A stretch of DNA of 64,000 nucleotides from [Ruminococcus] lactaris ATCC 29176 (GTDB lineage Bacteria; Bacillota; Clostridia; Lachnospirales; Lachnospiraceae). The notes beneath the pieces are model-generated. The model had not been told where the DNA came from and made no database searches. It worked only from the letters and a program-made list of their open reading frames with translations. Numbering within the stretch: position 1 is the stretch's first letter; each line of letters begins with the position of its first letter. Positions 12,700 to 60,415 of this stretch are shown in pieces. Where the stretch lies: NCBI RefSeq assembly GCF_025152405.1, contig NZ_CP102292.1, positions 1,116,001-1,180,000 of the forward strand. Reading direction: 5' to 3'. A program made the position numbers and the translations under genes.

Positions 12700-12893
12700 G
12701 ATGTTGGGGTCAAAAACCCCCAACAATGATGCCAACGGATTGTTTCGTGCTACGCACTCCCACAATCCTACCCGCTATTCGCATATCATGGTGCTTACGC
12801 CCCACTTTTATGCTCATATCGGGGCGGGTCTCAAGGTCATTCTACCACCAGTGTGCAAGCACACGTGGTTTCAGACCTTTTGAGCCTGACATC
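12700..12893. repeat. Dispersed palindromic repeat, copy A (full length, 194 bp)
   Basis: The element starts GATGTTGGGGTCAAAA and ends TTTTGAGCCTGACATC, which form imperfect terminal inverted repeats. It is flanked on both sides by the 7-bp sequence ATTAAAA (12,693-12,699 and 12,894-12,900), consistent with a target duplication. The left arm folds as GTTGGGG/CCCCAAC and the right arm as ACCAC-GTGTGC/GCACAC-GTGGT (12,844-12,869). It lies in the 5' leader of the aminotransferase gene, 34 nt upstream of the start codon. No transposase gene is inside. Confidence 0.8.
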
Positions 12894-12940
12894 ATTAAAA
12901 TGATGGCAGGATCAACAGATCCAAATTATGATATGAATAT

Positions 12941-13059
12941 AAGTTCAATTTCAGAACCTAAAAGTTCAAATCATGAAGAGATCATACCATAAAAAAGAAA
13001 AAAGTTCAATATAAAAACTGAAAATGGGAAATGTAAAAGTTCAAAAAAGAAAAGTTCAA
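12941..13059 (-). promoter_or_regulatory. Array of five AAGTTCAA (TTGAACTT) sites
   Basis: The 8-mer AAGTTCAA occurs at 12,941, 12,962, 13,002, 13,037 and 13,052, always in the same orientation, with spacings of 21, 40, 35 and 15 bp. One copy forms the -35 box of the candidate aminotransferase promoter. This density is far above chance and suggests an operator array, possibly for the HTH domain of the adjacent gene. Confidence 0.55.
12981..13009 (-). promoter_or_regulatory. Sigma-A promoter for the HTH-aminotransferase gene
   Basis: On the minus strand TTGAAC (13,009-13,004), a 17-bp spacer and TATGAT (12,986-12,981). This predicts a leader of about 310 nt that contains repeat copy A. Confidence 0.65.
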
Positions 13060-13128
13060 TTCCGGATTCGCAAAAAGAACCGTAAAAAAATTCGTGATAA
13101 AGGACATGAAAAAAAGAAAAAAAGGGTC

Positions 13129-13157
13129 TTTACAGATACAGAAAAAGAGGTTACAAT
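13129..13157 (+). promoter_or_regulatory. Sigma-A promoter for thrS
   Basis: TTTACA (13,129-13,134), a 17-bp spacer and TACAAT (13,152-13,157), just upstream of the T-box leader. Confidence 0.75.
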
Positions 13158-13164
13158 TAACACC

Positions 13165-13445
13165 GAATAAAGCGTTGAAGAGACGAGTAGCATAAGTAGA
13201 AGTCGCAGAGAGAAGTGCATTTGGTGGGAGCATTTTGATGGAACTTATGTGAAGACCAGCTCTGAGTGACCCTAATCCGGTCCGGTGATTCCGTTATCAT
13301 CATGAATGAGATCTTTTCTTTTTGATAAGCCGGCTTTAGCAGATATGCAGAGTGCCGGAGAGGAAAAGATGAAGACGGGTGGAACCACGGTAGATGAAGA
13401 TATCGTCCCTGACATTGTAGAGATGCAGTGTCAGGGATTTTTTCA
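13165..13445 (+). promoter_or_regulatory. T-box riboswitch (threonine) with terminator
   Basis: The leader has the T-box core GGGTGGAACCACGG (13,377-13,390), an AGTA motif in the 5' side of stem I, and the distal-loop-like GGTGGG. The context GAA-G-ACC-A puts a threonine specifier ACC at 13,255-13,257, matching the GAA-N-specifier-A arrangement of known T-boxes. A terminator follows (CCCTGACA 13,407-13,414 with TGTCAGGG 13,429-13,436, then a T-run). Uncharged tRNA-Thr is expected to stabilise the antiterminator and switch on thrS. Confidence 0.9.
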
Positions 13446-13512
13446 TGTTGTTGTTTTCTGATCCATGAATTTCCCTGACACGGGAAAATGAACAAAGAAA
13501 GGAAGCAGGAAC

Positions 13513-15480
13513 ATGAAAATTACATTAAAAGACGGTTCAGTGAAAGAGTACAGTGAAGCAAAATCGGTGTATGACATTGCAGCCGATATCAGCAGCGGAC
13601 TTGCAAGAGTTGCATGTGCAGGAGAAGTGAATGGAGAGATCGTAGATCTCAGGACAGTGATTGACAGTGACTGTGAACTGAATATTGTCACAGCAAGTGA
13701 TCCGGAGGGATTGAAGGTGATCCGCCATACAGCATCTCATGTGCTTGCACAGGCAGTAAAGAGACTGTTTCCGGATGCAAAAATTGCAATCGGGCCGGCA
13801 ATTGAAGACGGATTTTATTATGATTTTGAGGCAGAACCATTTTCAAGAGAGACTCTGGATAAGCTGGAAGCGGAAATGAAGAAGATCATCAAAGAGGGAC
13901 ATGAGCTGAAGAGATATACACTTCCAAGAGAAGAAGCAATTAAATTCATGCAGGAAAAGAATGAGCCTTTCAAAGTAGAACTGATCGAAGATCTTCCGGA
14001 AGGGGAAGAAATCTCTTTCTATGATCAGGGAGAATTTGTTGATTTATGTGCAGGTCCTCATCTGATGACAACAAAAGGAATCAAGGCATTTAAGCTGACT
14101 TCTTCATCCATGGCATACTGGAGAGGAGACTCCGATAAAGCACGCCTTCAGAGAATTTACGGAACTGCATTTAATAAAAAGGAAGAACTGAATGCATATC
14201 TTGAAAAACTGGAAGATGCAAAGCGTCGTGACCATAATAAGCTGGGACGTGAGATGGAACTCTTTACAACAGTAGATGTAATCGGACAGGGACTTCCGTT
14301 ATTCCCGCCAAAGGGAACAAAAATGATTATGAAACTGCAGAGATGGATTGAAGATCTGGAAGATAAAGAATGGGGTTATGTCCGTACAAGAACACCATTG
14401 ATGGCGAAATCAGATCTGTATAAGATTTCCGGACACTGGGATCATTACAAAGAAGGAATGTTCGTTCTTGGTGATGAAGAAAAAGATAAAGAAGTTTTTG
14501 CACTCCGCCCGATGACCTGTCCATTCCAGTACTATGTATATAAGAATACGCAGAAGTCCTATCGTGATCTTCCATATCGTATGAGTGAGACATCTACACT
14601 GTTCCGTTCCGAGGATTCAGGTGAGATGCACGGACTGACACGTGTCCGTCAGTTTACGATCACAGAGGCACATAATGTAATCCGTCCGGATCAGGCAGAG
14701 GAAGAGCTGAAGAACTGCTTTGATCTTGCTTATTATGTATTATCGACGCTGGGACTTCAGGATGATGTGACCTACCGTCTGTCAAAATGGGATCCGGCAA
14801 ATAAAAAGAAATATCTTGGGGATGAGGATTACTGGAACAGAACCCAGGAAGCACTGCGTGAAGTACTGCGTGAAAAGGGCGTTCCATTTGTAGAGGCTGA
14901 CGGAGAAGCAGCTTTCTATGGTCCGAAGATCGACATTCAGGCAAAGAACGTATATGGCAAAGAAGATACAATGATCACGATCCAGCTTGACTGTGCAATC
15001 GCTGAAAACTTTGATCTGTATTATATCGATCAGAACGGAGATAAAGTACGTCCGTATATCATTCACAGAACTTCCATGGGATGCTATGAGAGAACACTTG
15101 CATGGCTGATCGAGAAGTATGCCGGAAAGTTCCCGACCTGGTTATGCCCGGAGCAGGTGCGTGTACTTCCTATTTCTGAAAAGTATGAGGAGTATGCAAA
15201 TAAAGTATGTGCAGAACTGAAAAAGAATGATATTGATGTGACGGTAGATAACCGTTCAGAAAAGATCGGATTCAAGATCCGCGAAGCAAGACTGGATAAA
15301 CTTCCGTATATGTTGGTTGTAGGACAGCAGGAAGAGGCAGATGGAACCGTATCTGTCAGAAGCCGGTTTGCAGGAAATGAAGGAACAAAATCCCTGGATG
15401 AATTTATTGATGCGATCTGTAAAGAAATCCGTACAAAAGAGATCCGCAAAGAACTGCCGGAGGAAGAAAAAAAGAGATAA
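13513..15480 (+). CDS. thrS: Threonyl-tRNA synthetase
   Basis: This class II synthetase charges tRNA-Thr. The 655 residues show a TGS domain at the N-terminus (about 1-62), then the editing domain with zinc-like ligands HTASH and DLCAGPH. The catalytic core has PMTCPFQYYVYK (the zinc-binding Cys), the motif 2 loop with RVRQFTITEAH, and motif 3 around HRTSMGCYERT. The C-terminal anticodon-binding domain starts near PEQVRVLP. Length is normal. AAAGGAAGC precedes the ATG. Expression is controlled by the T-box upstream, and a terminator follows. Confidence 0.97.
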   Translation: MKITLKDGSVKEYSEAKSVYDIAADISSGLARVACAGEVNGEIVDLRTVIDSDCELNIVTASDPEGLKVIRHTASHVLAQAVKRLFPDAKIAIGPAIEDGFYYDFEAEPFSRETLDKLEAEMKKIIKEGHELKRYTLPREEAIKFMQEKNEPFKVELIEDLPEGEEISFYDQGEFVDLCAGPHLMTTKGIKAFKLTSSSMAYWRGDSDKARLQRIYGTAFNKKEELNAYLEKLEDAKRRDHNKLGREMELFTTVDVIGQGLPLFPPKGTKMIMKLQRWIEDLEDKEWGYVRTRTPLMAKSDLYKISGHWDHYKEGMFVLGDEEKDKEVFALRPMTCPFQYYVYKNTQKSYRDLPYRMSETSTLFRSEDSGEMHGLTRVRQFTITEAHNVIRPDQAEEELKNCFDLAYYVLSTLGLQDDVTYRLSKWDPANKKKYLGDEDYWNRTQEALREVLREKGVPFVEADGEAAFYGPKIDIQAKNVYGKEDTMITIQLDCAIAENFDLYYIDQNGDKVRPYIIHRTSMGCYERTLAWLIEKYAGKFPTWLCPEQVRVLPISEKYEEYANKVCAELKKNDIDVTVDNRSEKIGFKIREARLDKLPYMLVVGQQEEADGTVSVRSRFAGNEGTKSLDEFIDAICKEIRTKEIRKELPEEEKKR

Positions 15481-15535
15481 AATGCTCTGCTTTTAAGAGA
15501 TTGTCCGGATGAGGGGAAGTCCGGTAAATGATGAG

Positions 15536-15594
15536 AAACTCCTTTTGGAAATGTCAGAAACTGATGTTACGATATTTCCGGAAGGAGTTTTTTA
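15536..15594 (+). terminator. Intrinsic terminator after thrS
   Basis: AAACTCCTTTTGGAAAT pairs with ATTTCCGGAAGGAGTTT across a 20-nt loop, and TTTT follows. The short open frame over this stretch (15,509-15,712) is explained by the hairpin. Confidence 0.8.
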
Positions 15595-15734
15595 TCTTTA
15601 CGCAGACAATGAAAAAATTAAGAGTCAGCGGAGAAAATTAAGAAATTCTTCAAGTGATTTTACAGGGGAGATAAGATATACTGAAACTAACAGATCCTGG
15701 GAATGGCTGTGATCTTAAAAGGAGGGAAAGGCAA

Positions 15735-17060
15735 GTGAAAGAAAAGAAATTGAGCCTGAAGCAGAAAAAGATGCTGATAATAGCGGGGATCATACTGGCA
15801 GTACTTCTGGTCGTGATTCTGGTGATCAGGGCAGTGACCGGAAAAGGAAGCGGGAACGGAGAAGATGTGCTGTATGCAGATTCCGTCGGTATGCTGACGG
15901 GAACAGGACTGGGGACTCAGAACCGGTTTTCCGGCGTTGTGGAGGCACAGGATACTCTGAAACTGACGCTTTCAGATGATCAGAAAGTAAAAGAGATTTT
16001 TGTGGAGAAGGGGCAGGAAGTAAAGCCTGGGACAAAGCTGTATGAGTTCGATACAGAAGAGCTTGCGATGACACTGGAACAGAGAAATCTGGAGCTGGAT
16101 AAGATCAATAACAGTATCAGCAACCTGAATAACCAGATTGCGACCCTGACAGCGGAGAAAAAGAATGCCCCGGCCAGTGAGCAGTTATCTTATACGACTC
16201 AGATCCAGGAACTTCAGACCAATGTGAAGCAGGAAGAATACAATTATAAAGTAAAAGAACTGGAAGTAAACCGTATGAAAAAGAACCTGGAATCTTCTGT
16301 TGTGACATCTACGATTTCAGGAATCGTTCAGGAAATTAACGAGGAGCAGGGATATGATGATGTTACCGGAGAAAAGAAACCGTTTATGAGTATTCTTTCT
16401 ACAGGAAAATACCGGATCAAAGGAAAGATCAGCGAGCAGAATATTGGAAATCTTTCACCGGGAATGGAAGTGACGATTCGTTCAAGAGTGGATGAGACGC
16501 AGATATGGAAGGGAACAGTGGATTCTATTGATACGGAAAAGCCGGAGAGTGGTTCTCAGAACAGCTATTATTCCGGTTCTGACAGTTCCCAGCAGGCAAC
16601 GAAATATCCATTTTACGTGACACTGGAGAAAAGTGAAGGGCTGATGCTCGGACAGCACGTCTATGTTGAACCCGGAACAGGAAGTGAGACAGATTCTGGT
16701 ATGTGGCTGATGAGTTCCTATATCGTAGATGCAGATTCTGATGTTCCATATGTATGGGTGGCAGGCAAGAATGACCGCCTTGAAAAGAGAGAGATCAAAC
16801 TGGGTGAGAAAAATGAGGATATGGATACCTGGGAAGTACTGGACGGACTGAAGAATACGGATTATATCGTGTGGCCAAGCGAAGATTGCAAAAAAGGTGC
16901 AGCGGTTGTAAAAAATACGGCAGTGAATAATGAAAGTGGAATCAGTGAAGATGAACTGAATGGAACTGCAGGAACAGAGCCGGAAGATGGAACAGAGGCA
17001 GAACCGGAAGACGGGACATCTGAAAATCTGCAGAAAGATGGAGGAATGGAGGACGAATAA
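15735..17060 (+). CDS. HlyD/RND-type adaptor of an ABC exporter (adaptor 1)
   Basis: The 441-residue protein has one N-terminal membrane anchor (about 10-28), a split lipoyl domain (VEKGQEVKPGTKLYEFD, later STISGIVQEI), a helical hairpin (about 115-190, heptad-like Leu/Ile/Gln-rich), a beta-barrel domain and an acidic Glu/Asp-rich tail. This is the architecture of periplasmic adaptor proteins working with MacB-type ABC transporters. In a Gram-positive cell it would sit outside the membrane. The GTG start has AGGAGGG upstream. Its stop overlaps the ATPase start by 1 nt (TAATG), so the genes are coupled. The exported substrate is unknown. Confidence 0.85.
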   Translation: MKEKKLSLKQKKMLIIAGIILAVLLVVILVIRAVTGKGSGNGEDVLYADSVGMLTGTGLGTQNRFSGVVEAQDTLKLTLSDDQKVKEIFVEKGQEVKPGTKLYEFDTEELAMTLEQRNLELDKINNSISNLNNQIATLTAEKKNAPASEQLSYTTQIQELQTNVKQEEYNYKVKELEVNRMKKNLESSVVTSTISGIVQEINEEQGYDDVTGEKKPFMSILSTGKYRIKGKISEQNIGNLSPGMEVTIRSRVDETQIWKGTVDSIDTEKPESGSQNSYYSGSDSSQQATKYPFYVTLEKSEGLMLGQHVYVEPGTGSETDSGMWLMSSYIVDADSDVPYVWVAGKNDRLEKREIKLGEKNEDMDTWEVLDGLKNTDYIVWPSEDCKKGAAVVKNTAVNNESGISEDELNGTAGTEPEDGTEAEPEDGTSENLQKDGGMEDE

Positions 17061-17752
17061 TGCTTCTGAAGTTAGAACATATATATAAAGATTACGTTCA
17101 GGACAAACTGACAGTCCCTGTTTTGAAAGATATCTGCTTTCAGGTAGAACGCGGAGAATATGTTGCGATCATGGGACCTTCGGGTTCAGGAAAGACGACT
17201 CTGATGAATATCATCGGATGTCTTGATGTGGCAAGTTCCGGGGTCTATCAGCTCAACGGGACAGACCTGAAGGATTTTGACGACCGGACAATGGCACAGA
17301 TCAGAAACCGCTCCATTGGATTTGTCTTTCAGACATTTAATCTGCTGCCAAAACAGACAGCACTGGATAATGTAGCACTGCCACTTCTTTATTCCAATGT
17401 ATCCAAAAAAGAGCGGATGGAGCGGGCGAAGGCAGCACTGGAACGGGTCGGACTTGGGGATCGCCTGGATTTCAGACCGACGCAGTTATCAGGAGGACAG
17501 AAGCAGCGTGTGGCCATCGCAAGAGCAATCGTTACCGGCCCTGATCTTCTGCTGGCAGATGAGCCTACGGGAGCGTTGGATTCGGTTTCGGGACGGCAGA
17601 TCATGGAATTATTTTCAGAACTGAATCAGGAAGGAATGACAGTGCTGATGATCACACATGATGCACAGATCGCAGGGTGTGCTGACCGGATGGTGATGAT
17701 CAAAGATGGAAGATTGAAGGACGGAGAGGAGCAGGAGAATGGAAAAGAATAA
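17060..17752 (+). CDS. MacB-like ABC transporter ATP-binding protein
   Basis: This is the 230-residue ATPase subunit of the exporter. It shows Walker A GPSGSGKT, the Q-loop with FVFQTFNLLP, the signature LSGGQKQR, Walker B with LLADEPTGALD, and the H-loop in MITHD. These motifs place it in the LolD/MacB/FtsE group that energises permeases with a large extracytoplasmic domain. It overlaps both neighbours (1 nt upstream, 14 nt downstream), which supports tight co-translation with the adaptors. Confidence 0.92.
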   Translation: MLLKLEHIYKDYVQDKLTVPVLKDICFQVERGEYVAIMGPSGSGKTTLMNIIGCLDVASSGVYQLNGTDLKDFDDRTMAQIRNRSIGFVFQTFNLLPKQTALDNVALPLLYSNVSKKERMERAKAALERVGLGDRLDFRPTQLSGGQKQRVAIARAIVTGPDLLLADEPTGALDSVSGRQIMELFSELNQEGMTVLMITHDAQIAGCADRMVMIKDGRLKDGEEQENGKE

Positions 17753-19466
17753 GAAAAAGATCCTGATCGGTTCGGTTTCCGGCGTTGCGGCAGCAGTCCT
17801 GTTGACCGGGATCATTGTTGCGGCTGTGCAGGGAAGCGGAAAAGCGGTAAAAGTAGCTCCTGTCAGTAATATGAATTCCGGTGGCTGGTCCAGCGGTTCT
17901 GAAATCTCTGATTACGGAACTGTAACAACGAATATGAACCAGGATATCTATTATGATGAATCTCTTACTGTGAAAGAAGTCTATGTTAAAGCCGGAGATA
18001 CGGTTAAGATCGGGGATCGTCTGGTTGCTTATGATACAACTCTGGCAACGATGGAAAAAGAAATGAAGCAGATGGAGATTGAGGGAATTGCCTTAAACCG
18101 TAAGAATATTGAAGCAGAACTGAAGCAACTGCGTGGAACAAAAGCGGTTGCAAAAGGAAATGTAGCAGGGACCAATACAGTTGTGAAGACCAGTGCGGCA
18201 GGAACAGATACAGTCGTAAACGCAGATACAGGGAAGAGCAGGACAACAGCATCAGTGCAGAGGCAGAATATGACTGCTCGGGAAGGAAATACGGATACCG
18301 GAACGGCAGGATCGGATCAGGATTCAACGGTGACAGATGGAAAAGAGACCGGTAAACCCTTCCCGGAAGAATTAAAGGGAACAAAGATTTATGATAAGAT
18401 TACGGAAGAGTCCGTTCCGTACAATGAGGATGGTGACGGAACAGAAGAAAAACCTTACCGGTATCTCTGTGCACCTGGGGTGACGGTTCATGCACAGTTT
18501 ATGCTGAAAGTGCTGGAAAATAGAGAAATCTGCACATTTGAGGTGGTAGATGATAAGGATAATCCGACCAGGATTCTTTATGAATGGACACTGGATGGAA
18601 AGAATGGTCAGATCATCAAGCCAGTTCAGCCAGACCAGCCGGACACACCATCTGAACCGGATGTACCGGACGAACCGGATACACCGTCCGAGCCGGAAGA
18701 TCCATCTGAACCGGATGATCCGGGAATTTCAGATGGACCTACAAAAGAAGAGCTGGCAAAAGAGATTCAGGAGAAGGAAGAACGGTTAAAAGAGCTGGAA
18801 CTGGAGCAGAGAACAGCCGAACTGGAACTGAAGCAATTGAAAAAAAAGGTAGACAATGCGATCGTAACCAGTACAGTGGAAGGAACCGTAAAATCGGTGA
18901 CGGATGAAGAGACAGCAAGACTGGAAAATACACCGATCATCAGTGTTGTAGGTGAGGATGGATTTTATGTGACAGGGCGTGTGGCAGAGACAGCATTTGA
19001 TAAGATCAAAGAGGGAATGACTGTGACTGTTACGTCATGGACCAGCGGGATGACTTATGAGGCGACGATCAGCGGAGTCAGCAGTTCACCGTCAACAGGA
19101 TATTCGGACGGAAATAATGAAAATCTTTCTTATTATCCATTCACAGCAGTGATCCATGGGGACGCGGAACTTTCCAATGGAGACGGAGTAAATCTGAGTA
19201 TTGATGATCTTTCTTCCCAGGATGAGGATGAAATCTATCTTGAGCAGATGTTTGTCAGGGAAGACGGAAACCAATATTATGTATATAAAAAGGGTGATAA
19301 CGGGAAATTGAAAAAGCAGTATGTCGAAGTTGGAAAAAATGTATCCGGTTCTCTGGAGATTGTATCCGGTCTGAGCCTGGATGACGAGATTGCATTTCCA
19401 TATGGAAGAGATGTTCGGGAAGGTGCGAAGACAAAGTCGACAGATACATTATATGATTATAAGTAA
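17739..19466 (+). CDS. HlyD-type adaptor with a large hairpin insertion (adaptor 2)
   Basis: The 575-residue protein has a membrane anchor (about 8-30), a first lipoyl half (VKAGDTVKIGDRLVAYD), then the first helix of the adaptor hairpin. About 200 residues are inserted at the hairpin tip (about 133-335). The insertion holds a Thr/Gly-rich stretch, a small beta-like region (KPYRYLCAPGVTVHAQF) and a Pro/Glu/Asp repeat built from PSEPD, PDEPD and PSEPE units. The second helix (KEELAKEIQEKEERLKELE), the second lipoyl half and the beta barrel follow. It is the second adaptor in the same operon. The insertion may be a surface or wall-spanning domain; that is inference. Confidence 0.8.
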   Translation: MEKNKKKILIGSVSGVAAAVLLTGIIVAAVQGSGKAVKVAPVSNMNSGGWSSGSEISDYGTVTTNMNQDIYYDESLTVKEVYVKAGDTVKIGDRLVAYDTTLATMEKEMKQMEIEGIALNRKNIEAELKQLRGTKAVAKGNVAGTNTVVKTSAAGTDTVVNADTGKSRTTASVQRQNMTAREGNTDTGTAGSDQDSTVTDGKETGKPFPEELKGTKIYDKITEESVPYNEDGDGTEEKPYRYLCAPGVTVHAQFMLKVLENREICTFEVVDDKDNPTRILYEWTLDGKNGQIIKPVQPDQPDTPSEPDVPDEPDTPSEPEDPSEPDDPGISDGPTKEELAKEIQEKEERLKELELEQRTAELELKQLKKKVDNAIVTSTVEGTVKSVTDEETARLENTPIISVVGEDGFYVTGRVAETAFDKIKEGMTVTVTSWTSGMTYEATISGVSSSPSTGYSDGNNENLSYYPFTAVIHGDAELSNGDGVNLSIDDLSSQDEDEIYLEQMFVREDGNQYYVYKKGDNGKLKKQYVEVGKNVSGSLEIVSGLSLDDEIAFPYGRDVREGAKTKSTDTLYDYK

Positions 19467-19478
19467 GGGGGGATTTCT

Positions 19479-52478: not shown

Positions 52479-52525
52479 AAGAAAAACCTCCTTAAGTCAT
52501 GTATTTTTAAGTGCTCTGATATTCT

Positions 52526-52600
52526 GATATGCGGGTCAAAAGGTCTTTCACCCACCTATGAGCAAGCTCATGTGGGCTTAGACCTTTTGACCCTGGCATC
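52526..52600. repeat. Dispersed palindromic repeat, copy B (short form, 75 bp)
   Basis: GGGTCAAAAGGTCT (52,533-52,546) and AGACCTTTTGACCC (52,580-52,593) are perfect inverted repeats. They enclose a hairpin, CCCAC-CT-ATGAGC-AA-GCTCAT-GTGGG (52,551-52,576). The right end reads GGCATC. Flanking 7-mers (ATATTCT and ATATAAA) match at only four positions. It lies 48 nt upstream of the recombinase start. It shares the right arm with copy A and lacks the GTCGGGG arm. Confidence 0.8.
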
Positions 52601-52685
52601 ATATAAATTATAGCATATACAGTCAGAATTTACCACATCTTTTGGAAAAATCGGTATTTGTCGTATAGATTGGCTTCTGTAAATA

Positions 52686-52781
52686 GAACCCGGAGAATGT
52701 TCTCCTGCCGTTGTATTCTTACTATCATTTAAGATGGAACATTGGAATATCACGCAGGATAAGGGATGCTTCTCCGGGTTC
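52686..52781. ncRNA. Candidate structured RNA or long hairpin
   Basis: GAACCCGGAGAA (52,686-52,697) and TTCTCCGGGTTC (52,770-52,781) are perfect 12-bp inverted copies. Inside, TCCTGC/GCAGGA, GTATTC/GAATAT and CAT/ATG can extend the same helix in nested order. No open reading frame with a start and ribosome site covers it. It lies between the LysM gene stop (52,832) and the recombinase gene leader. Strand, transcription and function are unknown. Confidence 0.45.
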
Positions 52782-52831
52782 AGGGAGTGTATATATATCA
52801 ATACATAGGGTGTATATTGATACCTTGGTTA

Positions 52832-53146: not shown

Positions 53147-53172
53147 AAGTAAATCCCCCTTTAGAATATTGA

Positions 53173-53275
53173 GAACGTATGTTCATCTTGCTTATGTATG
53201 TATTATACTGCCCGAACAGATGTTTGTCAACAAGAAAAGGATAAAAAATCGAACATATTTTCGCAACAAATGTTT
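53173..53275. promoter_or_regulatory. LexA (SOS) box array between the LysM gene and lexA
   Basis: There are four boxes of the Gram-positive type (GAAC-N4-GTTC). They are GAACGTATGTTC (53,173-53,184, perfect), GAACAGATGTTT (53,214-53,225), GAACATATTTTC (53,251-53,262) and CAACAAATGTTT (53,264-53,275). Box 1 lies in the start region of the LysM transcript, box 2 in the LysM promoter spacer, and boxes 3-4 at the lexA promoter. Confidence 0.85.
53202..53230 (-). promoter_or_regulatory. Consensus promoter for the LysM gene
   Basis: On the minus strand TTGACA (53,230-53,225), a 17-bp spacer holding a LexA box, and TATAAT (53,207-53,202). Both hexamers match consensus exactly, so tight repression is expected. 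Confidence 0.85.
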
Positions 53276-53302
53276 GCTTTTAAAACAATGATATGGTACT
53301 AT
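53274..53302 (+). promoter_or_regulatory. lexA promoter
   Basis: TTGCTT (53,274-53,279), a 17-bp spacer and TACTAT (53,297-53,302). A LexA box overlaps the -35, giving autorepression. Confidence 0.7.
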
Positions 53303-53340
53303 AAGGTATAAGATTTTATGTATACGGAGGCGTATTGGAT

Positions 53341-53958
53341 ATGGCAAAAGGTAATATCAGTAAAAAGCAGGAAGAGATTCTGCAATATATAAAAGATCAG
53401 ATTCTGCAGAGAGGATTCCCACCGGCTGTCCGGGAGATCTGTGAGGCAGTACATCTGAAGTCTACCTCTTCTGTCCACTCCCACCTTGAGACACTGGAGA
53501 AGAACGGATATATCCGGAGAGATCCTACAAAGCCAAGAGCGATCGAGATCCTGGATGATGATTTCAATCTGCTTCGCAGAGAGATGGTTCAGGTTCCTAT
53601 CGTGGGACGTGTGGCGGCAGGAGAACCGATTCTGGCACAGCAGAACATCGAAGATTATTTTCCGTTCCCTGCAGAGTATGTATCAAACAAGCAGCTCTTT
53701 CTTTTAAAGGTTCAAGGGGAAAGCATGGTGAATGCAGGAATCCTGAATGGAGATTATGTCCTGGTTGAAGAGGCAAAGACCGCAGAGAATGGAGAGAAAG
53801 TTGTAGCGATGATCGAGGATGGAGCTACAGTGAAGACTTTTTACAGAGAAGAAGGTGTGATCCGTCTTCAGCCGGAGAATGATTTTATGGATCCGATCAT
53901 TGTGCAGGATGTGGTGATTCTGGGACGTGTTATTGGAGTTATGAGATTTTTTAAATAG
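53341..53958 (+). CDS. lexA: SOS repressor LexA
   Basis: The 205-residue repressor has a winged helix-turn-helix (about 1-65, [23 protein letters not shown]), the self-cleavage site Ala-Gly in GRVAAGEP, the catalytic Ser in QGESMVNAG and the general-base Lys in the segment [16 protein letters not shown]. RecA filaments trigger cleavage and derepress SOS genes. ATG 53,341 lies 10 nt after GGAGG; the TTG at 53,335 is 4 nt away and less likely. Confidence 0.96.
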
Positions 53959-53990
53959 AAAAAGAAGCTGGCAGATACCAGCTTCTTTTT
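53959..53990. terminator. Bidirectional intrinsic terminator after lexA
   Basis: AAAGAAGCTGG pairs with CCAGCTTCTTT, with flanking A- and T-runs. It also lies about 70 bp past the rsfS stop on the other strand. Confidence 0.85.
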
Positions 53991-54059
53991 CTATTGTATA
54001 GAAGTACTACTCTTCTATTTCCATTTTCAGAAAAGGTTTTGATTTCAGATTTATATAAT

Positions 54060-54410
54060 TTATAATTCTTCTGCAGGAATTTCTTTTCCATCCTTCCAGA
54101 TTCTTTCGAGATTATAGAAGAGACGGTTTTCTCTATCGAATACGTGGATGATCACATCGCCGAAATCCATCAGAACCCATTTTCCGGAAGCCTGTCCTTC
54201 TCTTTCTTTCAGAGGATAACCGGCTTTGTGAAGCTGCTCTTCCACATTTTCTACAAGTGCATTTACCTGGCTGTCACTGTTACCATGAGCGATAAGAAAG
54301 TAATCTGCAAGAACAGAAATACCGGAAATATCGATTACCTTGATATCTTCTCCCTTTTTTTCACTCAGAGCCTCGTATGCAATACGTGCCATTTCTTTTG
54401 CCTGATTCAT
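54060..54410 (-). CDS. rsfS: Ribosomal silencing factor RsfS
   Basis: The 116-residue protein binds L14 on the large subunit and blocks 30S joining in starvation. It shows KVIDISGISVLADYFLIAHGNSDSQVNALV and the late segment WVLMDFGDVIIHVF. ATG 54,410 has AAGGAG about 8 nt upstream. An in-frame upstream extension is encoded by repeat copy C and is not likely to be translated. Confidence 0.94.
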   Translation of the reverse strand: MNQAKEMARIAYEALSEKKGEDIKVIDISGISVLADYFLIAHGNSDSQVNALVENVEEQLHKAGYPLKEREGQASGKWVLMDFGDVIIHVFDRENRLFYNLERIWKDGKEIPAEEL

Positions 54411-54435
54411 ATTATTCTCCTTTTTACAATAGAAA

Positions 54436-54493
54436 GATGTCGGGGTCAAAAGCCCCCGACTTTGATGCCTACGGATTGCTCCGTGCTAGCATC
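54436..54493. repeat. Dispersed palindromic repeat, copy C (58 bp)
   Basis: The element starts GATGTCGGGGTC and ends GCTAGCATC. It is flanked on both sides by ATAGAAA (54,429-54,435 and 54,494-54,500), a clear 7-bp direct repeat. It holds the hairpin GTCGGGG-TCAAAAGC-CCCCGAC and the ACGGA/TCCGT stem. It sits 25 nt upstream of rsfS and supplies the last codons and stop of yqeK. Confidence 0.85.
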
Positions 54494-55051
54494 ATAGAAA
54501 TTATAAGTTTCAATACTCATTGGATCAACCGGCTTGCCGGTTTCACGAAGATACTCTACCGTATTTTTGGAACAGAGGCAGATAGCATCGTCAATCGACT
54601 GGAATGCAAGCTTTCTTACTTCCGGTAATCCGGGAATGAGTTTCCGGTTTGGTTCGATATAGTCAGCGATATAAATGATCTTTTCTAAAAGTGTCATGTC
54701 AGGACGTCCGGTGGTATGCCATCGGATCGCATCAAGGACACTCTGATCGGTGATTCCGTACTCATGTTCTGCAAGATAAACTCCAAGCTTTGCATGAACC
54801 AGTGCAGGCATCTGTTCTTCCGCATCAGAAAGAGCAATATTCTTCTTCCTGCAAAGCTGGATCTGTTCTTCCGCAGAGCAGTATTTTCCGCAGTCATGGA
54901 GCAGTCCGGCTGTCAGGGCAGCCTGGATTTCTTCCCCGTAGTTCATGGCAAGAGCTGCCGCGGTATACATGACACCGATAGTATGTTCATAACGGTCTTT
55001 TTTCAGCCGCCTGGAAAGTAATTTTTTTATCTCTCTGAGTTGTTCTGTCAT
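54446..55051 (-). CDS. yqeK: HD-domain phosphohydrolase YqeK (Ap4A hydrolase family)
   Basis: The 201-residue HD protein has the metal motif HDCGK and further conserved His and Asp residues (YEHTIGV, then ALVHAKLGVYLAEH and DAIRWHTTGR). Bacillus YqeK cleaves diadenosine tetraphosphate symmetrically. It starts directly after nadD (TAA-ATG). The last 15 residues or so (DASTEQSVGIKVGGF) come from repeat copy C, so the natural C-terminus has been replaced. The catalytic core is intact. Confidence 0.9.
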   Translation of the reverse strand: MTEQLREIKKLLSRRLKKDRYEHTIGVMYTAAALAMNYGEEIQAALTAGLLHDCGKYCSAEEQIQLCRKKNIALSDAEEQMPALVHAKLGVYLAEHEYGITDQSVLDAIRWHTTGRPDMTLLEKIIYIADYIEPNRKLIPGLPEVRKLAFQSIDDAICLCSKNTVEYLRETGKPVDPMSIETYNFYDASTEQSVGIKVGGF

Positions 55052-55666
55052 TTATCTGTCTTCCTCCCTGTAGAGCTTTTGCTCCCGAATATAATCTGCA
55101 ACATTGTCAGGAACCATAAAACGGACGGTAAGACCATCAGAAGCCCTTTTTCGGATTGTAGTTGAGGAAACCTCTACCAGTGGGGCACGAAGCAGTTCGA
55201 TATTTGCTCCATAAGTCTGTTTCAGATACAGGATCTGTCCACGCATGGCAGAAATGTCCTTGTCATCCCGCATTGCTGCAAGGATCGTACAGGTTGTAAA
55301 AATCTCCCTGAAAAACCGCCACTCTTCAATGGAAAATAAGGAGTCAGCTCCAAGGATGAAATAAAAATCTACATCCGGGTACAGGCGGTTAAATTCCTTC
55401 ATAGTCTGATACGTGTAAGAATGTTTTGTAGTATCAGCTTCTGAAAGATCAAGCTTAAAGTAGGGAATATGTTCGATCGCAAGACGAACCATTTCCACAC
55501 GGTTTCTCAAAGCCTGCTCAGAATCTTTGGTTTCTTTATGCGGTGGATTTCCATTTGGAACGAACCAGATTTCGTCCAGTCCGAAATCTTCGTATGCAAA
55601 TTCACCAAGAAGGAGGTGACCGATATGGATCGGATCGAACGTCCCTCCCATAATTCCAACTTTCAT
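55052..55666 (-). CDS. nadD: Nicotinate-nucleotide adenylyltransferase NadD
   Basis: The 204-residue enzyme makes deamido-NAD from nicotinate mononucleotide and ATP. It has the GGTFDPIHIGHL nucleotidyltransferase motif, FVPNGNPPHK, and the late SSTTIRKR motif. ATG 55,666 has AAGGAG 6 nt upstream. The order yhbY-nadD-yqeK-rsfS is the standard Firmicutes block. Confidence 0.95.
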   Translation of the reverse strand: MKVGIMGGTFDPIHIGHLLLGEFAYEDFGLDEIWFVPNGNPPHKETKDSEQALRNRVEMVRLAIEHIPYFKLDLSEADTTKHSYTYQTMKEFNRLYPDVDFYFILGADSLFSIEEWRFFREIFTTCTILAAMRDDKDISAMRGQILYLKQTYGANIELLRAPLVEVSSTTIRKRASDGLTVRFMVPDNVADYIREQKLYREEDR

Positions 55667-55676
55667 AAGCAACTCC

Positions 55677-55967
55677 TTATGGAAGGATTATTTTTTTCTT
55701 ATCATCCTTACCTTCTCTGTAAAGTACAATTTTCTTTCCGATTACCTGAACTATTTCAGATCTGGTTCTCTGAGCCAGAGTTTCAGCCAGTTCTCTCGGA
55801 TCGTCCATGCAGTTGTTCAGGACACTGATCTTGATCAGCTCGCGGGCATCCAGTGCCTCAGATACAGCCTGCGTAAGTCCGGGGTTCATACTTGCCTTTC
55901 CAATCTGGAAAATCGGATCCATTGTCATGGCAAGCCCTTTTAAATAGGCTCTCTGCTTTGTTGTCAT
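55677..55967 (-). CDS. yhbY: YhbY-family RNA-binding protein (CRM domain)
   Basis: The 96-residue protein is a single CRM domain (KQRAYLKGLAMTMDPIFQIGK), with a GxxG-like loop in QIGKASMNPG. Members bind pre-50S particles and help ribosome assembly. It sits with obgE, another 50S assembly factor. Confidence 0.92.
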   Translation of the reverse strand: MTTKQRAYLKGLAMTMDPIFQIGKASMNPGLTQAVSEALDARELIKISVLNNCMDDPRELAETLAQRTRSEIVQVIGKKIVLYREGKDDKKKIILP

Positions 55968-55991
55968 AATCTTCTCTCCTAATCTTCAAAA

Positions 55992-56021
55992 TCATTCAGA
56001 ATCCGCTTTCTGTGCGGATTC
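55992..56021 (-). other. Stem-loop between obgE and yhbY
   Basis: AGAATCCGC pairs with GCGGATTCT over a 7-nt loop just past the obgE stop. No strong T-run follows on the minus strand, so it may be a weak terminator or a processing site. Confidence 0.5.
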
Positions 56022-57305
56022 TTATTTATAGTAATCAAACTGTAATCCGTACATACGGACTGTATCGCCTTCCTGGATGCCTGCATTTTCAAGATCCTCA
56101 AGGATGCCGGAATCTTTCAGGAATTTCTGGAAGAAAGCAAATCCTTTTTCAGAATCGAGGTTGGTATAGCCAAGCATCTTTTCAATCTTAGGACCTTCTA
56201 CGACATACATTCCGTCGACCTGTTCTACCGTATATGGAAGATCCTCATAGATCAGTTCATCATCCGGGAAGTATTCCTGCTCAAAAATGACAGGTGCTGT
56301 ATCCATCTGTTCCAACTGGCTGCTCACATAGTAAAGAAGTTCGGAAATTCCCTTGCCTGTTGCACCTGAAATAGGAAATACACGGATTCCCTTTGGCTCA
56401 AATTCATCTTTCAGACGCTGTACCGGATCGGACTCCGGTTCATAGATCAGATCGGTCTTATTTGCCGCAATCACCTGCGGACGCTGAGCAATTTCAGGAT
56501 TATAGGCAGCAAGTTCGGCATTGATTTTGTAAATGTCATCGACAGGATCTCTTCCCTCTGTTCCAGCAGCATCAACGACGTGGATCATCAGCTTAGTACG
56601 TTCTACATGACGTAAAAATTCATGTCCCAGTCCGACTCCTTCAGAAGCACCTTCGATCAGTCCGGGGATATCGGCCATGACAAATCCCTTGGCACCGTCC
56701 AGGTCAACAACGCCCAAATTAGGATTGAGAGTTGTAAAATGATAATTGGCAATCTTCGGTTCCGCATTTGTTACGCGGGATAAGAGGGTGGATTTCCCTA
56801 CGTTCGGGAATCCGATCAGTCCTACATCAGCAATGACTTTCAGCTCCATATATACTTCCAGTTCGCGAGCCGGCTGTCCAGGCTGGGCATATTTCGGAAC
56901 CTGCATGGTAGAGGTCGCAAAATGCTGATTCCCAAGTCCGCCCTTACCACCTTTGAGAACGATCTGGCGACGGTTGTCTCCCGACATGTCGGCAATGACT
57001 TTTCCTGAAACAGCTTCTTTGATCACGGTACCTTCGGGTACACGCAGGACAAGGTCTTTCCCGTCTTTGCCGTGGCATCTGCGTTTACCGCCCTGTTCTC
57101 CGTCTCCGGCGGCATATTTTCTTTTGTGACGGTAATCTACAAGTGTGTTGAGACCTTCATCCACTTCAAAGATCAGATCTCCGCCCTTGCCGCCGTCTCC
57201 GCCGTCGGGACCACCGTTGGGAACATAAAGCTCTCTTCGGAAGCTGCAATGCCCATCTCCGCCCTTACCGGAGCGGATGAATATCTTAGCTCTGTCTGCA
57301 AACAT
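56022..57305 (-). CDS. obgE: GTPase ObgE/CgtA
   Basis: The 427-residue GTPase acts in 50S assembly and stress signalling. It has the Gly-rich Obg fold (about 1-158), the G domain with GFPNVGKSTLL, DIPGLIEGA and NKTD, and the C-terminal OCT domain typical of Firmicutes (about 345-427). It is downstream of rpmA, separated by a terminator-like attenuator. Confidence 0.96.
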   Translation of the reverse strand: MFADRAKIFIRSGKGGDGHCSFRRELYVPNGGPDGGDGGKGGDLIFEVDEGLNTLVDYRHKRKYAAGDGEQGGKRRCHGKDGKDLVLRVPEGTVIKEAVSGKVIADMSGDNRRQIVLKGGKGGLGNQHFATSTMQVPKYAQPGQPARELEVYMELKVIADVGLIGFPNVGKSTLLSRVTNAEPKIANYHFTTLNPNLGVVDLDGAKGFVMADIPGLIEGASEGVGLGHEFLRHVERTKLMIHVVDAAGTEGRDPVDDIYKINAELAAYNPEIAQRPQVIAANKTDLIYEPESDPVQRLKDEFEPKGIRVFPISGATGKGISELLYYVSSQLEQMDTAPVIFEQEYFPDDELIYEDLPYTVEQVDGMYVVEGPKIEKMLGYTNLDSEKGFAFFQKFLKDSGILEDLENAGIQEGDTVRMYGLQFDYYK

Positions 57306-57345
57306 ATTTTGTCTCCTTTAATTTATAAAATAATGATAAGTTGAT

Positions 57346-57377
57346 AAAAAGCCCCAGACTGAAATAAGTCTGAGGCT
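57346..57377 (-). terminator. Terminator or attenuator between rpmA and obgE
   Basis: On the minus strand GCCTCAGACT pairs with AGTCTGGGGC, followed by TTTTT. It probably reduces transcription from the ribosomal protein genes into obgE. Confidence 0.75.
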
Positions 57378-57437
57378 TCTGTTGTTGCCATTTGTGCGAG
57401 TGAAAAGATTCCGTCGGAACTTTCCAGTCAACGCCGA

Positions 57438-57722
57438 TTACTCAGCTACTGGATAGATAGAAACCTGTTTCTTATCTCTTCCTTTTCTTTCAAATCTTAC
57501 AACACCGTCTACAAGTGCAAACAGAGTATCGTCTCCACCACGTCCTACATTAAGACCCGGGTGAATCTTTGTTCCACGCTGTCTGTAAAGAATGTTACCA
57601 GCCTTTACAAACTGACCGTCAGCTCTCTTCGCTCCCAGTCTCTTTGATTCAGAGTCACGACCGTTCTTTGTAGAACCAACTCCTTTTTTATGAGCAAAAA
57701 ACTGAAGATTCATTTTCATCAT
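57438..57722 (-). CDS. rpmA: 50S ribosomal protein L27 (with cleavable N-terminal extension)
   Basis: The 94-residue L27 starts [14 protein letters not shown]. The extension up to LQFF is removed by the Prp protease in Firmicutes so that the Ala-His-Lys N-terminus can reach the peptidyl transferase centre. The body ([24 protein letters not shown]) is highly conserved. The prp gene lies directly upstream. Confidence 0.97.
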
Positions 57723-57727
57723 GGTAA

Positions 57728-58060
57728 TTACACCTCCTTGAAAATTATGTCGATATATTGTTCGTATTCATTGCTGTCTTCTATCTCTTCCAGACCAAGA
57801 ATCATGGAATCCAGCAATAATGCGGCATCATGGGAAGGCTTTCCGTTAAAACGGAAGGAAATACTTCCGGTATCCTCGTCAGATACACAGCTTGTCTCAT
57901 CGTCCGTGAATCTCTCAATGGAGTTCAGTGCATTGATGACAAGGGCGGAGCAGGCAGCACACAAAATATCCTGTCCCTGCTCACCGTATCCGGCATGGTC
58001 TTCTGTATCAAATCCCACATATTCGTGCCGTTCGGTCTTATAAATGGTTACCTTAATCAT
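57728..58060 (-). CDS. prp: Ribosomal-processing cysteine protease Prp
   Basis: The 110-residue protease cleaves L27 after LQFF. The catalytic His is in [12 protein letters not shown] and the Cys in LCAACSALV, the family signature. It lies between rplU and rpmA as in most Firmicutes. Confidence 0.95.
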
Positions 58061-58071
58061 CGGATAACAGA

Positions 58072-58380
58072 TTAAGCGTTGATCTTTTCGATCTTAACTG
58101 CTGTATACTGCTGTCTGTGACCATTCTTTTTATGGTATCCAGATTTTCTCTTATACTTGTAAACGATAACCTTTTTTGCTTTGCCGTCACCGATTACGGA
58201 AGCTGTAACTGTTGCTCCCTCTACAGTCGGATTACCAACAACCATCTTGTCGTTGTTCACTGCAAGCACCTGGTCAAATGTATAAGTTTCTCCAGCTTCT
58301 ACACCAAGTTTCTCCACTTTAATGATATCGCCTTCAGCTACTTTGTACTGTTTACCACCTGTTGCTATAATTGCGTACAT
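58072..58380 (-). CDS. rplU: 50S ribosomal protein L21
   Basis: The 102-residue L21 starts [14 protein letters not shown] and ends with the basic [18 protein letters not shown] 58,380 has AGGAGGTG upstream. The longer frame would translate the leader. Confidence 0.97.
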
Positions 58381-58384
58381 ATGG

Positions 58385-58462
58385 CACCTCCTATTATCAT
58401 TACTCGCCAACTATGGTGTCTGTCATACAGAACTTGAAAACCTCGTTGTGCGGCATACCATT
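58385..58462 (-). promoter_or_regulatory. L21 leader (ribosomal protein autoregulatory RNA)
   Basis: The leader carries the conserved run with TGCCGCAC, GAGGTTTTCAAGTTCTG and TATGACAGACACCATAG, then TTGGCGAG. This resembles the L21 leader RNA known in front of rplU in Firmicutes. Confidence 0.65.
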
Positions 58463-58464
58463 GT

Positions 58465-58494
58465 ATATTAGCATACAGATACCGGTTTAGTCAA
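58465..58494 (-). promoter_or_regulatory. Promoter of the rplU-prp-rpmA-obgE operon
   Basis: On the minus strand TTGACT (58,494-58,489), an 18-bp spacer and TAATAT (58,470-58,465). It overlaps the end of the CBS-domain gene. Confidence 0.65.
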
Positions 58495-58909
58495 TAGGTT
58501 CTTTGGCTTTTTTTAATTTTTCATAACAATATTCAATAATGCTTTTTCTTGTTATGATTCCGATGAACTTTTTCTGATCATCAACAACCGGTACAAAATT
58601 CTGATTCATGGCTTTCTGAATCAGATCTTCCATGTCCGCATCGGCTGACACGGCCTCGTAATCAGCCTTTCGCGGGAAGTTCTGAATAAAAATTGTTTCT
58701 GCTTCTTTTACATTCAGGTGAGTATATTTCTTGATTCCCCAGAGGAGATCTCCCTCGGTCATAGTACCGACGTACTCTCCTGCTTTATTGAGCATGGGAA
58801 TGGAAGCATATTTATGAAATTCCATTGTCTCCAGTACCTGTCGGAGCGTACTGTGGTCATAGATAAATGCAACCTCACTTTTTGGCTTGAGAAAAAATAA
58901 AATATTCAT
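58487..58909 (-). CDS. CBS-domain pair protein
   Basis: The 140-residue protein is a single Bateman module of two CBS domains (LMEFHKYASIPMLNKAGEYVG in the first, NQNFVPVVDDQKKFIGIIT in the second), with no attached enzyme or transporter domain. Such proteins bind adenine nucleotides or cyclic di-AMP and regulate partners. The partner here is unknown. Confidence 0.85.
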   Translation of the reverse strand: MNILFFLKPKSEVAFIYDHSTLRQVLETMEFHKYASIPMLNKAGEYVGTMTEGDLLWGIKKYTHLNVKEAETIFIQNFPRKADYEAVSADADMEDLIQKAMNQNFVPVVDDQKKFIGIITRKSIIEYCYEKLKKAKEPID

Positions 58910-58981
58910 TTTGATCCTGTCCTTTTATATGCTGTCTGTTCTGTGGCTGATCTTTTTAAGGATCAGCCCTGACATTTGTGT

Positions 58982-60301
58982 TTAGATCTGGGTCAGAACA
59001 AAAATGTCATATAATGCACGGATCGCATGTTTGAACTCATCATGGCGTACACCAACAATAATGTTCAGCTCGCTGGATCCCTGATCAATCATCTTGACGT
59101 TGATATGGGCATGTGCCAGTGCAGAGAAGATCCTTCCTGCTGTACCTCTCGTGGACTTCATTCCACGACCAACGATCGCGATAAGTGCAAGATCAGACTC
59201 AAGCTCAATATGATCCGGATTTACGGCTTTATGGATTCCCGCAAGGATCTTCTGCTCTTTTTCTTCAAAGGCATCCTTGTGAACAAAAATTGTCATGGTA
59301 TCGATTCCTGATGGCATATGTTCAATGGAAACTCCGTTGTCTTCAAATACCTGAAGGACTTTCCTGCAGAAACCGATCTCAGAGTTCATCATTGCTTTTT
59401 CAATCGTAATAGCAGCGAAACCGTCTGTTCCGGCAATACCGGTGATCGTATACTTCGGCTGACAACAGGTTGCTTCTACGATCAGAGTTCCCTTGTCCTG
59501 TGGTGCATTTGTATTCTTGATGTTGATCGGAATACCGGCTTTTCTTACAGGGAAGATCGCATCCTCGTGGAGTACGCTGGCTCCCATGTAGGAAAGCTCA
59601 CGAAGTTCTTTATATGTGATGGTTTCGATAGATTTTGAATTTTTTACGATTCTCGGATCGGCAATCAGGAAACCGGAAACATCTGTCCAGTTCTCATACA
59701 GATCTGCCTGGACTGCCTGGGCTACGAGAGAACCGGTGACATCAGAGCCGCCTCTTGAAAATGTAACGACTGTTCCATCTTCTGTTGCACCGTAAAATCC
59801 CGGGATGACTGCATGCTCCAGCTCTGCAAGGCGGGCAGACAGGATCTCATTTGTTACCTCAGCGTTGAAAGTACCGTCTTTTTCAAATCGTACAACTTCT
59901 GCTGCATCTACAAACTCGTAACCAAGGTAGGCAGCCATTACCTTACCGTTCAGGAACTCACCACGGGAAGCAGCATAGTCGGAACCGCTTTTTGCCGCAA
60001 AATTCTTTTGGATCACTTCAAAATCTGCATCAAGAGAGAACTTCAGACCGAGACCATCAATAATCTCCTGATATCTTGCCTTGATCGCTGCGAGCTTTTC
60101 AGTGAAATCTTCCTCTCTTTCTGCTGCTCCGTAGCAGTCATATAACATATCAGTTACTTTTATGTCGGCAGAGAAACGCTTGCCCGGAGCTGACGGTACA
60201 ACGTATCTTCTGGATGAATCCGCATGGATAATATTTCCGACTTTTTTAAATTGTTCAGCACTTGCAAGAGAACTTCCGCCGAACTTTACTACTTTCTTCA
60301 T
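58982..60301 (-). CDS. lysC: Aspartate kinase
   Basis: The 439-residue enzyme makes aspartyl phosphate, the first step to lysine, threonine and methionine. It shows the KFGGSSLA start, SRGGSDVTGSL in the kinase domain, and two C-terminal ACT domains (about 290-439) for feedback control. ATG 60,301 has GGAGG upstream; the 13-residue longer frame lies in the leader. It is monocistronic, with repeat copy D in the leader. Which amino acid inhibits it cannot be told. Confidence 0.93.
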   Translation of the reverse strand: MKKVVKFGGSSLASAEQFKKVGNIIHADSSRRYVVPSAPGKRFSADIKVTDMLYDCYGAAEREEDFTEKLAAIKARYQEIIDGLGLKFSLDADFEVIQKNFAAKSGSDYAASRGEFLNGKVMAAYLGYEFVDAAEVVRFEKDGTFNAEVTNEILSARLAELEHAVIPGFYGATEDGTVVTFSRGGSDVTGSLVAQAVQADLYENWTDVSGFLIADPRIVKNSKSIETITYKELRELSYMGASVLHEDAIFPVRKAGIPINIKNTNAPQDKGTLIVEATCCQPKYTITGIAGTDGFAAITIEKAMMNSEIGFCRKVLQVFEDNGVSIEHMPSGIDTMTIFVHKDAFEEKEQKILAGIHKAVNPDHIELESDLALIAIVGRGMKSTRGTAGRIFSALAHAHINVKMIDQGSSELNIIVGVRHDEFKHAIRALYDIFVLTQI

Positions 60302-60346
60302 TCTTAACTTCCTCCAAAATGTAAATTGTGCATTCTGCATACGATA

Positions 60347-60415
60347 GATGTCGGGGTCAAAAGCCCCCGACTTTGATGCCTACGGATTGCTCCGTGCTAC
60401 GCACTCCCACAATCC
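60347..60415. repeat. Dispersed palindromic repeat, copy D (69 bp, left arm)
   Basis: Its first 50 bp match copy C (GATGTCGGGGTC...CTCCGTGCTA). It then continues as in copy A through CGCACTCCCACAATCC. TACGATA occurs on both sides (60,340-60,346 and 60,416-60,422), although the TAC of the right copy could be element sequence, since copy A also has CCTAC there. The right arm is missing. It lies 45 nt upstream of the aspartate kinase start. Confidence 0.8.

What the first reader, a model, noticed from the sequence alone, without database searches (positions are those of the whole stretch)
12700..60415. Dispersed hairpin repeat family with compensatory base changes and 7-bp flanking direct repeats
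Four copies (12,700-12,893; 52,526-52,600; 54,436-54,493; 60,347-60,415) share GATG...CATC-type ends and inverted GGGTCAAAA termini. Copies A and C have exact 7-bp flanking repeats (ATTAAAA, ATAGAAA), and copy D may have one (TACGATA). The left hairpin is GTCGGGG/CCCCGAC in C and D but GTTGGGG/CCCCAAC in A. The right hairpin differs between A and B at three base pairs, and each change is compensated. So the stems are conserved as structure, not as sequence. This looks like a non-autonomous mobile element (MITE or REP-like) without an obvious parent in the window.
Basis: seen in the sequence. Interest (0 to 1): 0.75.

Follow-up and report, generated by a model that had tools for sequence, protein, structure and literature searches.

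The report
A known RNA family is a transposon
The scattered hairpin repeats are copies of a small jumping DNA element that lacks its own enzyme, and the same sequence has been catalogued as the small-RNA family Clostridiales-1; insertion sequences with the same ends, the likely parent, were found in related gut bacteria.

Summary
Copy A (12700-12893) is a full 194-bp element. The fetched parts of its genome (2.73 Mb, one contig) hold 86 two-ended copies; 62 have exact target duplications (48 of 7 bp, 13 of 8, 1 of 9), and permutation gives about 1 for the 7-bp class. A relative shows the exact empty site of copy C.

First, the element is Rfam RF01699, Clostridiales-1 RNA (136.6 bits, E 3e-31), rated a probable, not cis-regulatory RNA in 2010; the match omits the left hairpin. 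Second, a likely parent was found: 1.84-1.95-kb insertion sequences in other Lachnospiraceae with matching 16-bp ends (0-3 mismatches), 7-8-bp duplications in 5 of 7 two-ended copies, and a 532-538-aa DDE transposase nearest IS1182 but below its curated cut-off. The window's genome gave no match to it.

Covariation is real (32 of 49 pairs, shuffles 16.3), but whether it serves RNA, DNA or nothing is open. Shorter forms probably arose by deletion in place. Copy D's duplication is doubtful; B has none.

The parts
12693..12699 (.). left 7-bp target duplication ATTAAAA of copy A
12700..12893 (+). copy A: full-length 194-bp element, left terminus at the low coordinate; Rfam strand is minus
12727..12894 (-). 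match to Rfam RF01699 Clostridiales-1 RNA, model positions 1-166 of 166; the left hairpin 12700-12726 lies outside the match
12894..12900 (.). right 7-bp target duplication ATTAAAA of copy A
52526..52600 (+). copy B: 75-bp derivative made of the right hairpin with a terminus on both sides (one degraded); no exact target duplication
54429..54435 (.). left 7-bp target duplication ATAGAAA of copy C
54436..54493 (+). copy C: 58-bp internal-deletion derivative, left hairpin plus last bases GCATC; exact empty site in relative G007
54494..54500 (.). right 7-bp target duplication ATAGAAA of copy C
60347..60415 (+). copy D: left part of an element, right terminus missing; the flanking TACGATA repeat is ambiguous

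Best explanation
The repeats are a miniature, non-autonomous transposon (MITE) bounded by 16-bp terminal repeats GATGYYRGGGTCAAAA. The likely enzyme is the DDE transposase of an IS1182-related insertion sequence found in other Lachnospiraceae with the same ends. Insertion goes into A+T-rich, mostly non-coding DNA and duplicates 7 (sometimes 8) bp. SHOWN by sequence: element boundaries, target duplications, an empty site, four main subfamilies in one genome, and insertion sequences with the same ends and duplication length. INFERRED: that this transposase moves the MITE in trans, that movement is cut-and-paste, and that the parent was lost from, or never resident in, the window's genome. The catalogued Clostridiales-1 RNA is this transposon. 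The insertion sequence has the ends without the folded core, which suggests that the ends suffice for the enzyme; whether the MITE itself needs its fold is not known.
For: 48 of 86 two-ended copies have exact 7-bp duplications, permuted mean 1.0, maximum 5; 13 more have 8 bp and 1 has 9. Exact empty site of C in G007; of 23 genus loci examined 18 had both flanks placed, and none of these 18 has a terminus there. Junction-spanning matches to uninterrupted copies of a second repeat for 7 of 62 copies, one aligned in full. Of 30 transposase loci, 16 have the terminus (3 or fewer mismatches; 10 with 1 or fewer) upstream of the start codon. Of 7 two-ended IS copies, 5 have exact 7-8-bp duplications. 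One, L406, lies in the window's own genus, is internally deleted, and has exact GATGTCGGGGTCAAAA at both ends with ATGCCAT duplications. Only 7 of 86 insertion points lie in an open frame of 100 or more codons across 400 joined bases.
Against: The window's genome gave no match to this transposase, although copy A has full-length relatives of 98% identity there. MITE and IS share only the ends. 24 of 86 two-ended copies, and 2 of 7 IS copies, have no exact duplication. Three of the four intact-frame elements have ends with 1-3 mismatches; for L387 four end pairs were possible and I took the one with a duplication. IS1272, an IS1182-family member, was reported without target duplication, so the family link alone would not predict 7 bp. 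14 of 30 transposase loci show no terminus upstream at 3 mismatches.
Confidence: 0.92

Rival explanations
1. Clostridiales-1 is an ordinary trans-acting small-RNA gene, as filed in Rfam, that happens to be multi-copy.
For: Weinberg 2010 Table 1: probable RNA, not cis-regulatory. The consensus folds at -105 kcal/mol on the Rfam strand against -87 on the other. Covariation beats shuffles. G-U exceptions outnumber A-C ones, 35 to 22 pair types (p 0.11) and 4 to 0 among those shared by 8 or more sequences (p 0.125).
Against: Precise ends with target duplications, empty sites, and terminal repeats shared with an insertion sequence. Copy number swings widely: one search gave 0 to 38 matches per genome, 38 being all the candidates scored in the window's genome.
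Confidence: 0.04
2. Both: the element is a transposon that carries a working structured RNA, and selection on that RNA keeps the core fold.
For: The fold core is kept across genera by two-sided changes, while the insertion sequence with the same ends lacks the core. G-U over A-C trend.
Against: The strand asymmetry is not significant. The same 65 pairs form on either strand, so DNA hairpins or palindrome correction would also do. The MITE may need its fold for movement; the short forms do not settle this. No expression data.
Confidence: 0.2
3. The compensated changes come from quasi-palindrome correction (intrastrand template switching), not from selection on structure.
For: Both strands fold alike; hairpins are known templates for such correction (recalled).
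Against: Correction acts on neighbouring arms (recalled), while the closing stem (columns 1-5 with 184-188) joins stretches about 160 nt apart and also shows two-sided changes, e.g. GC in 22 and AU in 8 of 30 sequences (the number of independent events is not known).
Confidence: 0.3
4. REP/BIME-like palindromes moved by a Y1 (RAYT-type) enzyme.
For: Short, hairpin-rich, mostly non-coding, high copy.
Against: 7-8-bp target duplications, inverted termini and a DDE-type likely parent. No search for a RAYT gene was made.
Confidence: 0.01

Closest known systems
Rfam RF01699, Clostridiales-1 RNA (Weinberg et al. 2010, PMC2864571)
   Same: Same sequence and fold: copy A matches model 1-166 of 166 at 136.6 bits.
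   Different: Filed as a small-RNA gene; the match leaves out the left terminal hairpin, and none of the passages I saw links it to a transposon. The supplement could not be read.
IS1182 family (NCBIfam NF033551; example IS1272, PMC5678879, passages)
   Same: Best NCBIfam match of the likely parent's transposase over nearly the full model, 121-149 bits; DUF772 and DDE_Tnp_1_6 domains.
   Different: Below the curated cut-off of 270 bits; 7-8-bp duplications instead of the inverted-repeat replacement without duplication reported for IS1272.
IS4 family, subgroup ISPepr1 (PMC2266710, passages)
   Same: 7-8-bp duplications and apparent preference for A+T-rich sites.
   Different: Different ends (YT-AA-YTT); no relation shown.
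Bacterial MITEs in general (recalled)
   Same: Short, no gene, terminal inverted repeats, target duplications, ends shared with an autonomous IS.
   Different: Multi-helix fold conserved across genera and already catalogued as an RNA.

Membership tests
MITE (non-autonomous DDE transposon) | terminal inverted repeats | tested here: met
   86 copies with GATGYYRGGGTCAAAA (3 or fewer mismatches) at both ends
MITE (non-autonomous DDE transposon) | target-site duplication | tested here: met
   62 of 86 exact; 48 of these 7 bp, permuted mean 1.0
MITE (non-autonomous DDE transposon) | empty sites at orthologous or related positions | tested here: met
   copy C exact in G007; 18 of 18 placed genus loci lack a terminus; 7 of 62 copies with junction-spanning matches in a second repeat
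MITE (non-autonomous DDE transposon) | autonomous element with the same ends | tested here: met
   L384-L387 (intact frames), L391, L406 (broken or deleted); ends with 0-3 mismatches; no match in the window's genome
MITE (non-autonomous DDE transposon) | movement in trans by that transposase | not testable with these tools
   needs a bench assay
Clostridiales-1 RNA (RF01699) | covariance model over gathering score | tested here: met
   136.6 bits against 48
Clostridiales-1 RNA (RF01699) | is a transcribed small RNA | not testable with these tools
   no expression data
IS1182 family (likely parent) | transposase over NCBIfam curated cut-off | tested here: not met
   121-149 bits against 270 in 4 of 4 proteins; hence called IS1182-related only
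IS1182 family (likely parent) | DUF772 and DDE_Tnp_1_6 domains over Pfam cut-off | tested here: met
   4 of 4; the residues I take as catalytic (D157, D350, E477; my assignment) are invariant in 5 of 5
REP/BIME | no target duplication (recalled) | tested here: not met
   62 of 86 copies have exact 7-9-bp duplications
REP/BIME | Y1 (RAYT) transposase (recalled) | not tested
   no search for a RAYT gene was made

The most novel reading that the evidence does not exclude
The element is a transposon whose cargo is a structured non-coding RNA: the multi-helix core, absent from the insertion sequence that bears the same ends, is kept across Lachnospiraceae genera because the RNA made from it does something (for example regulates its own mobilising transposase, or shields neighbouring transcription). 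Rfam would then have described the cargo, and the terminal repeats found here its vehicle.
Probability: 0.2. Interest if true: 0.8.

Novelty: new variant of a known kind. Interest (0 to 1): 0.6.

Why it matters
A bacterial RNA family without a known role (as far as the passages seen tell), listed under 'sRNA' in the data set of an RNA classifier (PMC7682815, one passage), turns out to be a transposable element with an identifiable likely parent. That explains its patchy, high-copy distribution and warns that covariation in intergenic repeats can mark mobile DNA; the Rfam 12.0 passages I saw raise MITEs as a confounder of microRNA families. It makes the function testable: does the transposase need the fold, or is the fold an RNA cargo? 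It also points to an IS1182-related group with 7-8-bp target duplications.

Tried and rejected
Parents tested and rejected. DDE_Tnp_1 (PF01609) in 18 element-rich genomes: of 30 loci scanned, only L243 (one 3-mismatch end) and L258 (a duplicated copy of the element) hold a terminus. Transposase_mut (PF00872): none in the window's genome; of 17 loci scanned, two hold a lone 3-mismatch end. A 1984-bp element (594 aa, 4 matches) beside two copies makes long duplications and merely duplicated one element. A transposase that looks IS630-like by eye sits inside a copy in L138. Viral-contig pattern scans and plasmid searches gave no parent; element hits in 17 unannotated fecal 'phage' contigs; one more such contig holds a broken transposase start.

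I had argued that 113-bp (6 copies, one junction, 3 with duplications) and 75-bp copies (6, 3 with duplications) had themselves moved, so that the core is dispensable. One search does not bear this out: every 113-bp copy is as near or nearer to a 194-bp copy as to another 113-bp copy (one is identical to two 194-bp copies at the shared positions), and its junction lies between imperfect direct repeats (CTTTGATGC, CTTTTATGC). Deletion in place, keeping the old duplication, fits at least as well; one letter shared by two copies and by no 194-bp copy is the only sign of the other. The 75-bp forms differ by subfamily. I lowered the RNA-cargo odds from 0.25 to 0.2 for this.

Strand test: G-U against A-C exceptions 35 to 22 types, p 0.11; by cells 218 to 50 (not independent). 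Solved structures: nothing credible (best E 0.34). Genomes with transposase and with termini (13 of 24, against 102 of 397 overall; by eye) are confounded because IS ends count as termini. Copy D: the case against its duplication in note 2 and rested on a wrong letter in my consensus; it stays open. Sites B and D align too poorly in relatives for an exact test.

Papers: searches listed no paper that I could see linking RF01699 to a transposon; most listed papers were not opened, and the supplement of PMC2864571 could not be read, so I do not claim that nobody noticed.

Full report
OBSERVATION. A is 194 bp with exact ATTAAAA on both sides; C is 58 bp with exact ATAGAAA; B (75 bp) has no exact duplication; D has a repeated TACGATA but no right terminus and stays undecided. 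The window is positions 1,116,001-1,180,000 of a single-contig genome of 2,733,858 bp.

WHOLE GENOME. The terminus GATGYYRGGGTCAAAA with one mismatch occurs 104 times forward and 103 reverse, against 0 and 0 for the reversed-pattern control. I fetched 110 stretches around the listed ends, 100 of 104 and 100 of 103, plus 7 places known from other hits. With 3 mismatches allowed they give 133 end records: 86 two-ended and 47 one-ended. Some one-ended records look like chance matches or truncations. Two-ended lengths are 194 (65), 195 (5), 193 (2), 113 (6), 75 (6), 183 and 135. Exact duplications: 48 of 7 bp, 13 of 8 bp, 1 of 9 bp, none in 24; the 7-bp count under permutation has mean 1.0 and maximum 5. 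The 62 duplications are 91% A+T. The 72 copies of 193-195 bp fall into four main groups of 25, 19, 13 and 7, with 8 left over. 7 of 86 insertion points lie in an open frame of 100 or more codons.

EMPTY SITES. Gene order around B-D is kept in the genus. At site C, 18 of 23 genus loci examined had both flanks placed, and none of the 18 has a terminus with 4 or fewer mismatches. Relative G007 reads CTCCTTTTTATAGAAATTATACG, one ATAGAAA, where the window has ATAGAAA-element-ATAGAAA. Of 7 relatives scored, joined flanks beat the element-bearing sequence in 5, one tied and one scored lower. Of 62 copies with exact duplications, 8 have a junction-spanning match in the fetched parts of the genome; one (L109 on L008) is a hit on its own locus and was dropped, and 7 lie in a second repeat family. 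L063 was aligned in full and shows one TAGTAAA at the uninterrupted site. None of the 62 had such a match in the other loci held.

KNOWN NAME. Copy A is a full-length match to Rfam RF01699, Clostridiales-1 (136.6 bits). In 61 genomes (the window's own and 60 relatives) it matches in 28, and over the gathering score in 18. Weinberg 2010 rates it a probable RNA, not cis-regulatory, in Clostridiales and human gut (Table 1, seen as a passage). The terminus itself, without mismatch, occurs in 102 of 397 genomes of the family; the reversed control hit once in the rows listed. The family is Lachnospiraceae by the title of one member's records: G366 and CAMNRH01 share a contig of 55,274 bases.

LIKELY PARENT. 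Contig ends in G366 led to an insertion-sequence end, to named records and to a transposase start. A 37-aa probe then matched 24 of 397 genomes. Of the 30 loci returned, 16 have the terminus upstream of the start codon, 10 with one or no mismatch; 14 have none at 3 mismatches. I fetched 19 of these places at greater length; 6 show two ends, and L406 makes 7. Intact frames of 532-538 aa lie in L384-L387, elements of 1843, 1848, 1860 and 1945 bp with end mismatches 0/0, 1/2, 3/2 and 2/3; L391 (1863 bp, 0/0) and L389 (2017 bp) have shorter frames. For L387 four end pairs were possible and the one with a duplication was taken. Of the 7, 5 have exact duplications (8, 7, 7, 7, 7). The transposase is nearest IS1182 (121-149 bits, cut-off 270) with DUF772 and DDE_Tnp_1_6 domains. 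The window's genome has no match at E 1e-10; 6 of 61 genomes do. L406, in the window's genus, is a 978-bp internally deleted IS with exactly the MITE terminus.

STRUCTURE. On 30 sequences, 94.7% of pair cells are standard, 32 of 49 pairs show two-sided changes (shuffles 16.3, sd 2.3; 0 of 500) and slid structures give 7-11. The 30 were chosen: the window copy, 11 representatives of 72 own copies, and 18 of 27 found elsewhere. The fold was predicted on the same alignment, which favours it. Copy A folds at -84.3 kcal/mol on the Rfam strand (z -7.4) and -72.9 on the other (z -6.0). Strand preference by G-U against A-C exceptions is not significant.

WHAT THE FOLD IS FOR. Open. The insertion sequence moves, by its duplications, with these ends and without the core. 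The 113- and 75-bp copies do not show that the MITE can do so, since deletion in place explains them as well. RNA cargo, a DNA-hairpin role in movement, or palindrome correction remain.

VERDICT. A MITE with an IS1182-related likely parent, already catalogued as an RNA. The mobile-element reading is near certain; trans-mobilisation by this transposase is inferred; an RNA function is possible and untested.

Noticed in passing
L247, L258, L268 (own genome near 486756, 937788, 1850989): A 1984-bp element (594-aa DDE_Tnp_1 transposase, 4 matches in the genome, 3 looked at) is flanked by direct repeats of 229 bp (96.5% alike), 187 and 58 bp, which recalls IS1634-type long duplications; the 187-bp one duplicated a copy of the repeat element.
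   Followed up: partly
L005:2949-3145 and L047, L050, L063, L079, L093, L097, L099, L101, L127: A second dispersed hairpin repeat (GCCGGATGGCTAT...ATAGCCATCCGGC) that serves as a target for the element; no Rfam family over its gathering score there in five loci searched.
   Followed up: partly
L138 (2384507-2386744 of the own genome): A transposase gene that looks IS630-like by eye lies between two halves of a copy of the element.
   Followed up: partly
L066, L067, L069, L082: One-ended copies broken off about 16-19 bp from the terminus, in the left hairpin, perhaps by hairpin-induced deletion.
   Followed up: no
L158 (G292) and window 52526-52600: Right-hairpin-only elements of 69-75 bp with termini on both sides occur in more than one genus; L158 has an 8-bp duplication.
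   Followed up: partly
L338-L340, L345-L347, L292: Both kinds of end of the likely parent IS in two genomes carry a shared subterminal repeat AACCTTGAAAATTTAATATTTTACAGTA or the start of it.
   Followed up: no
L298 (strain 1XD21-72): Two such ends lie next to each other, separated by 7 bp, ATGACAT.
   Followed up: no
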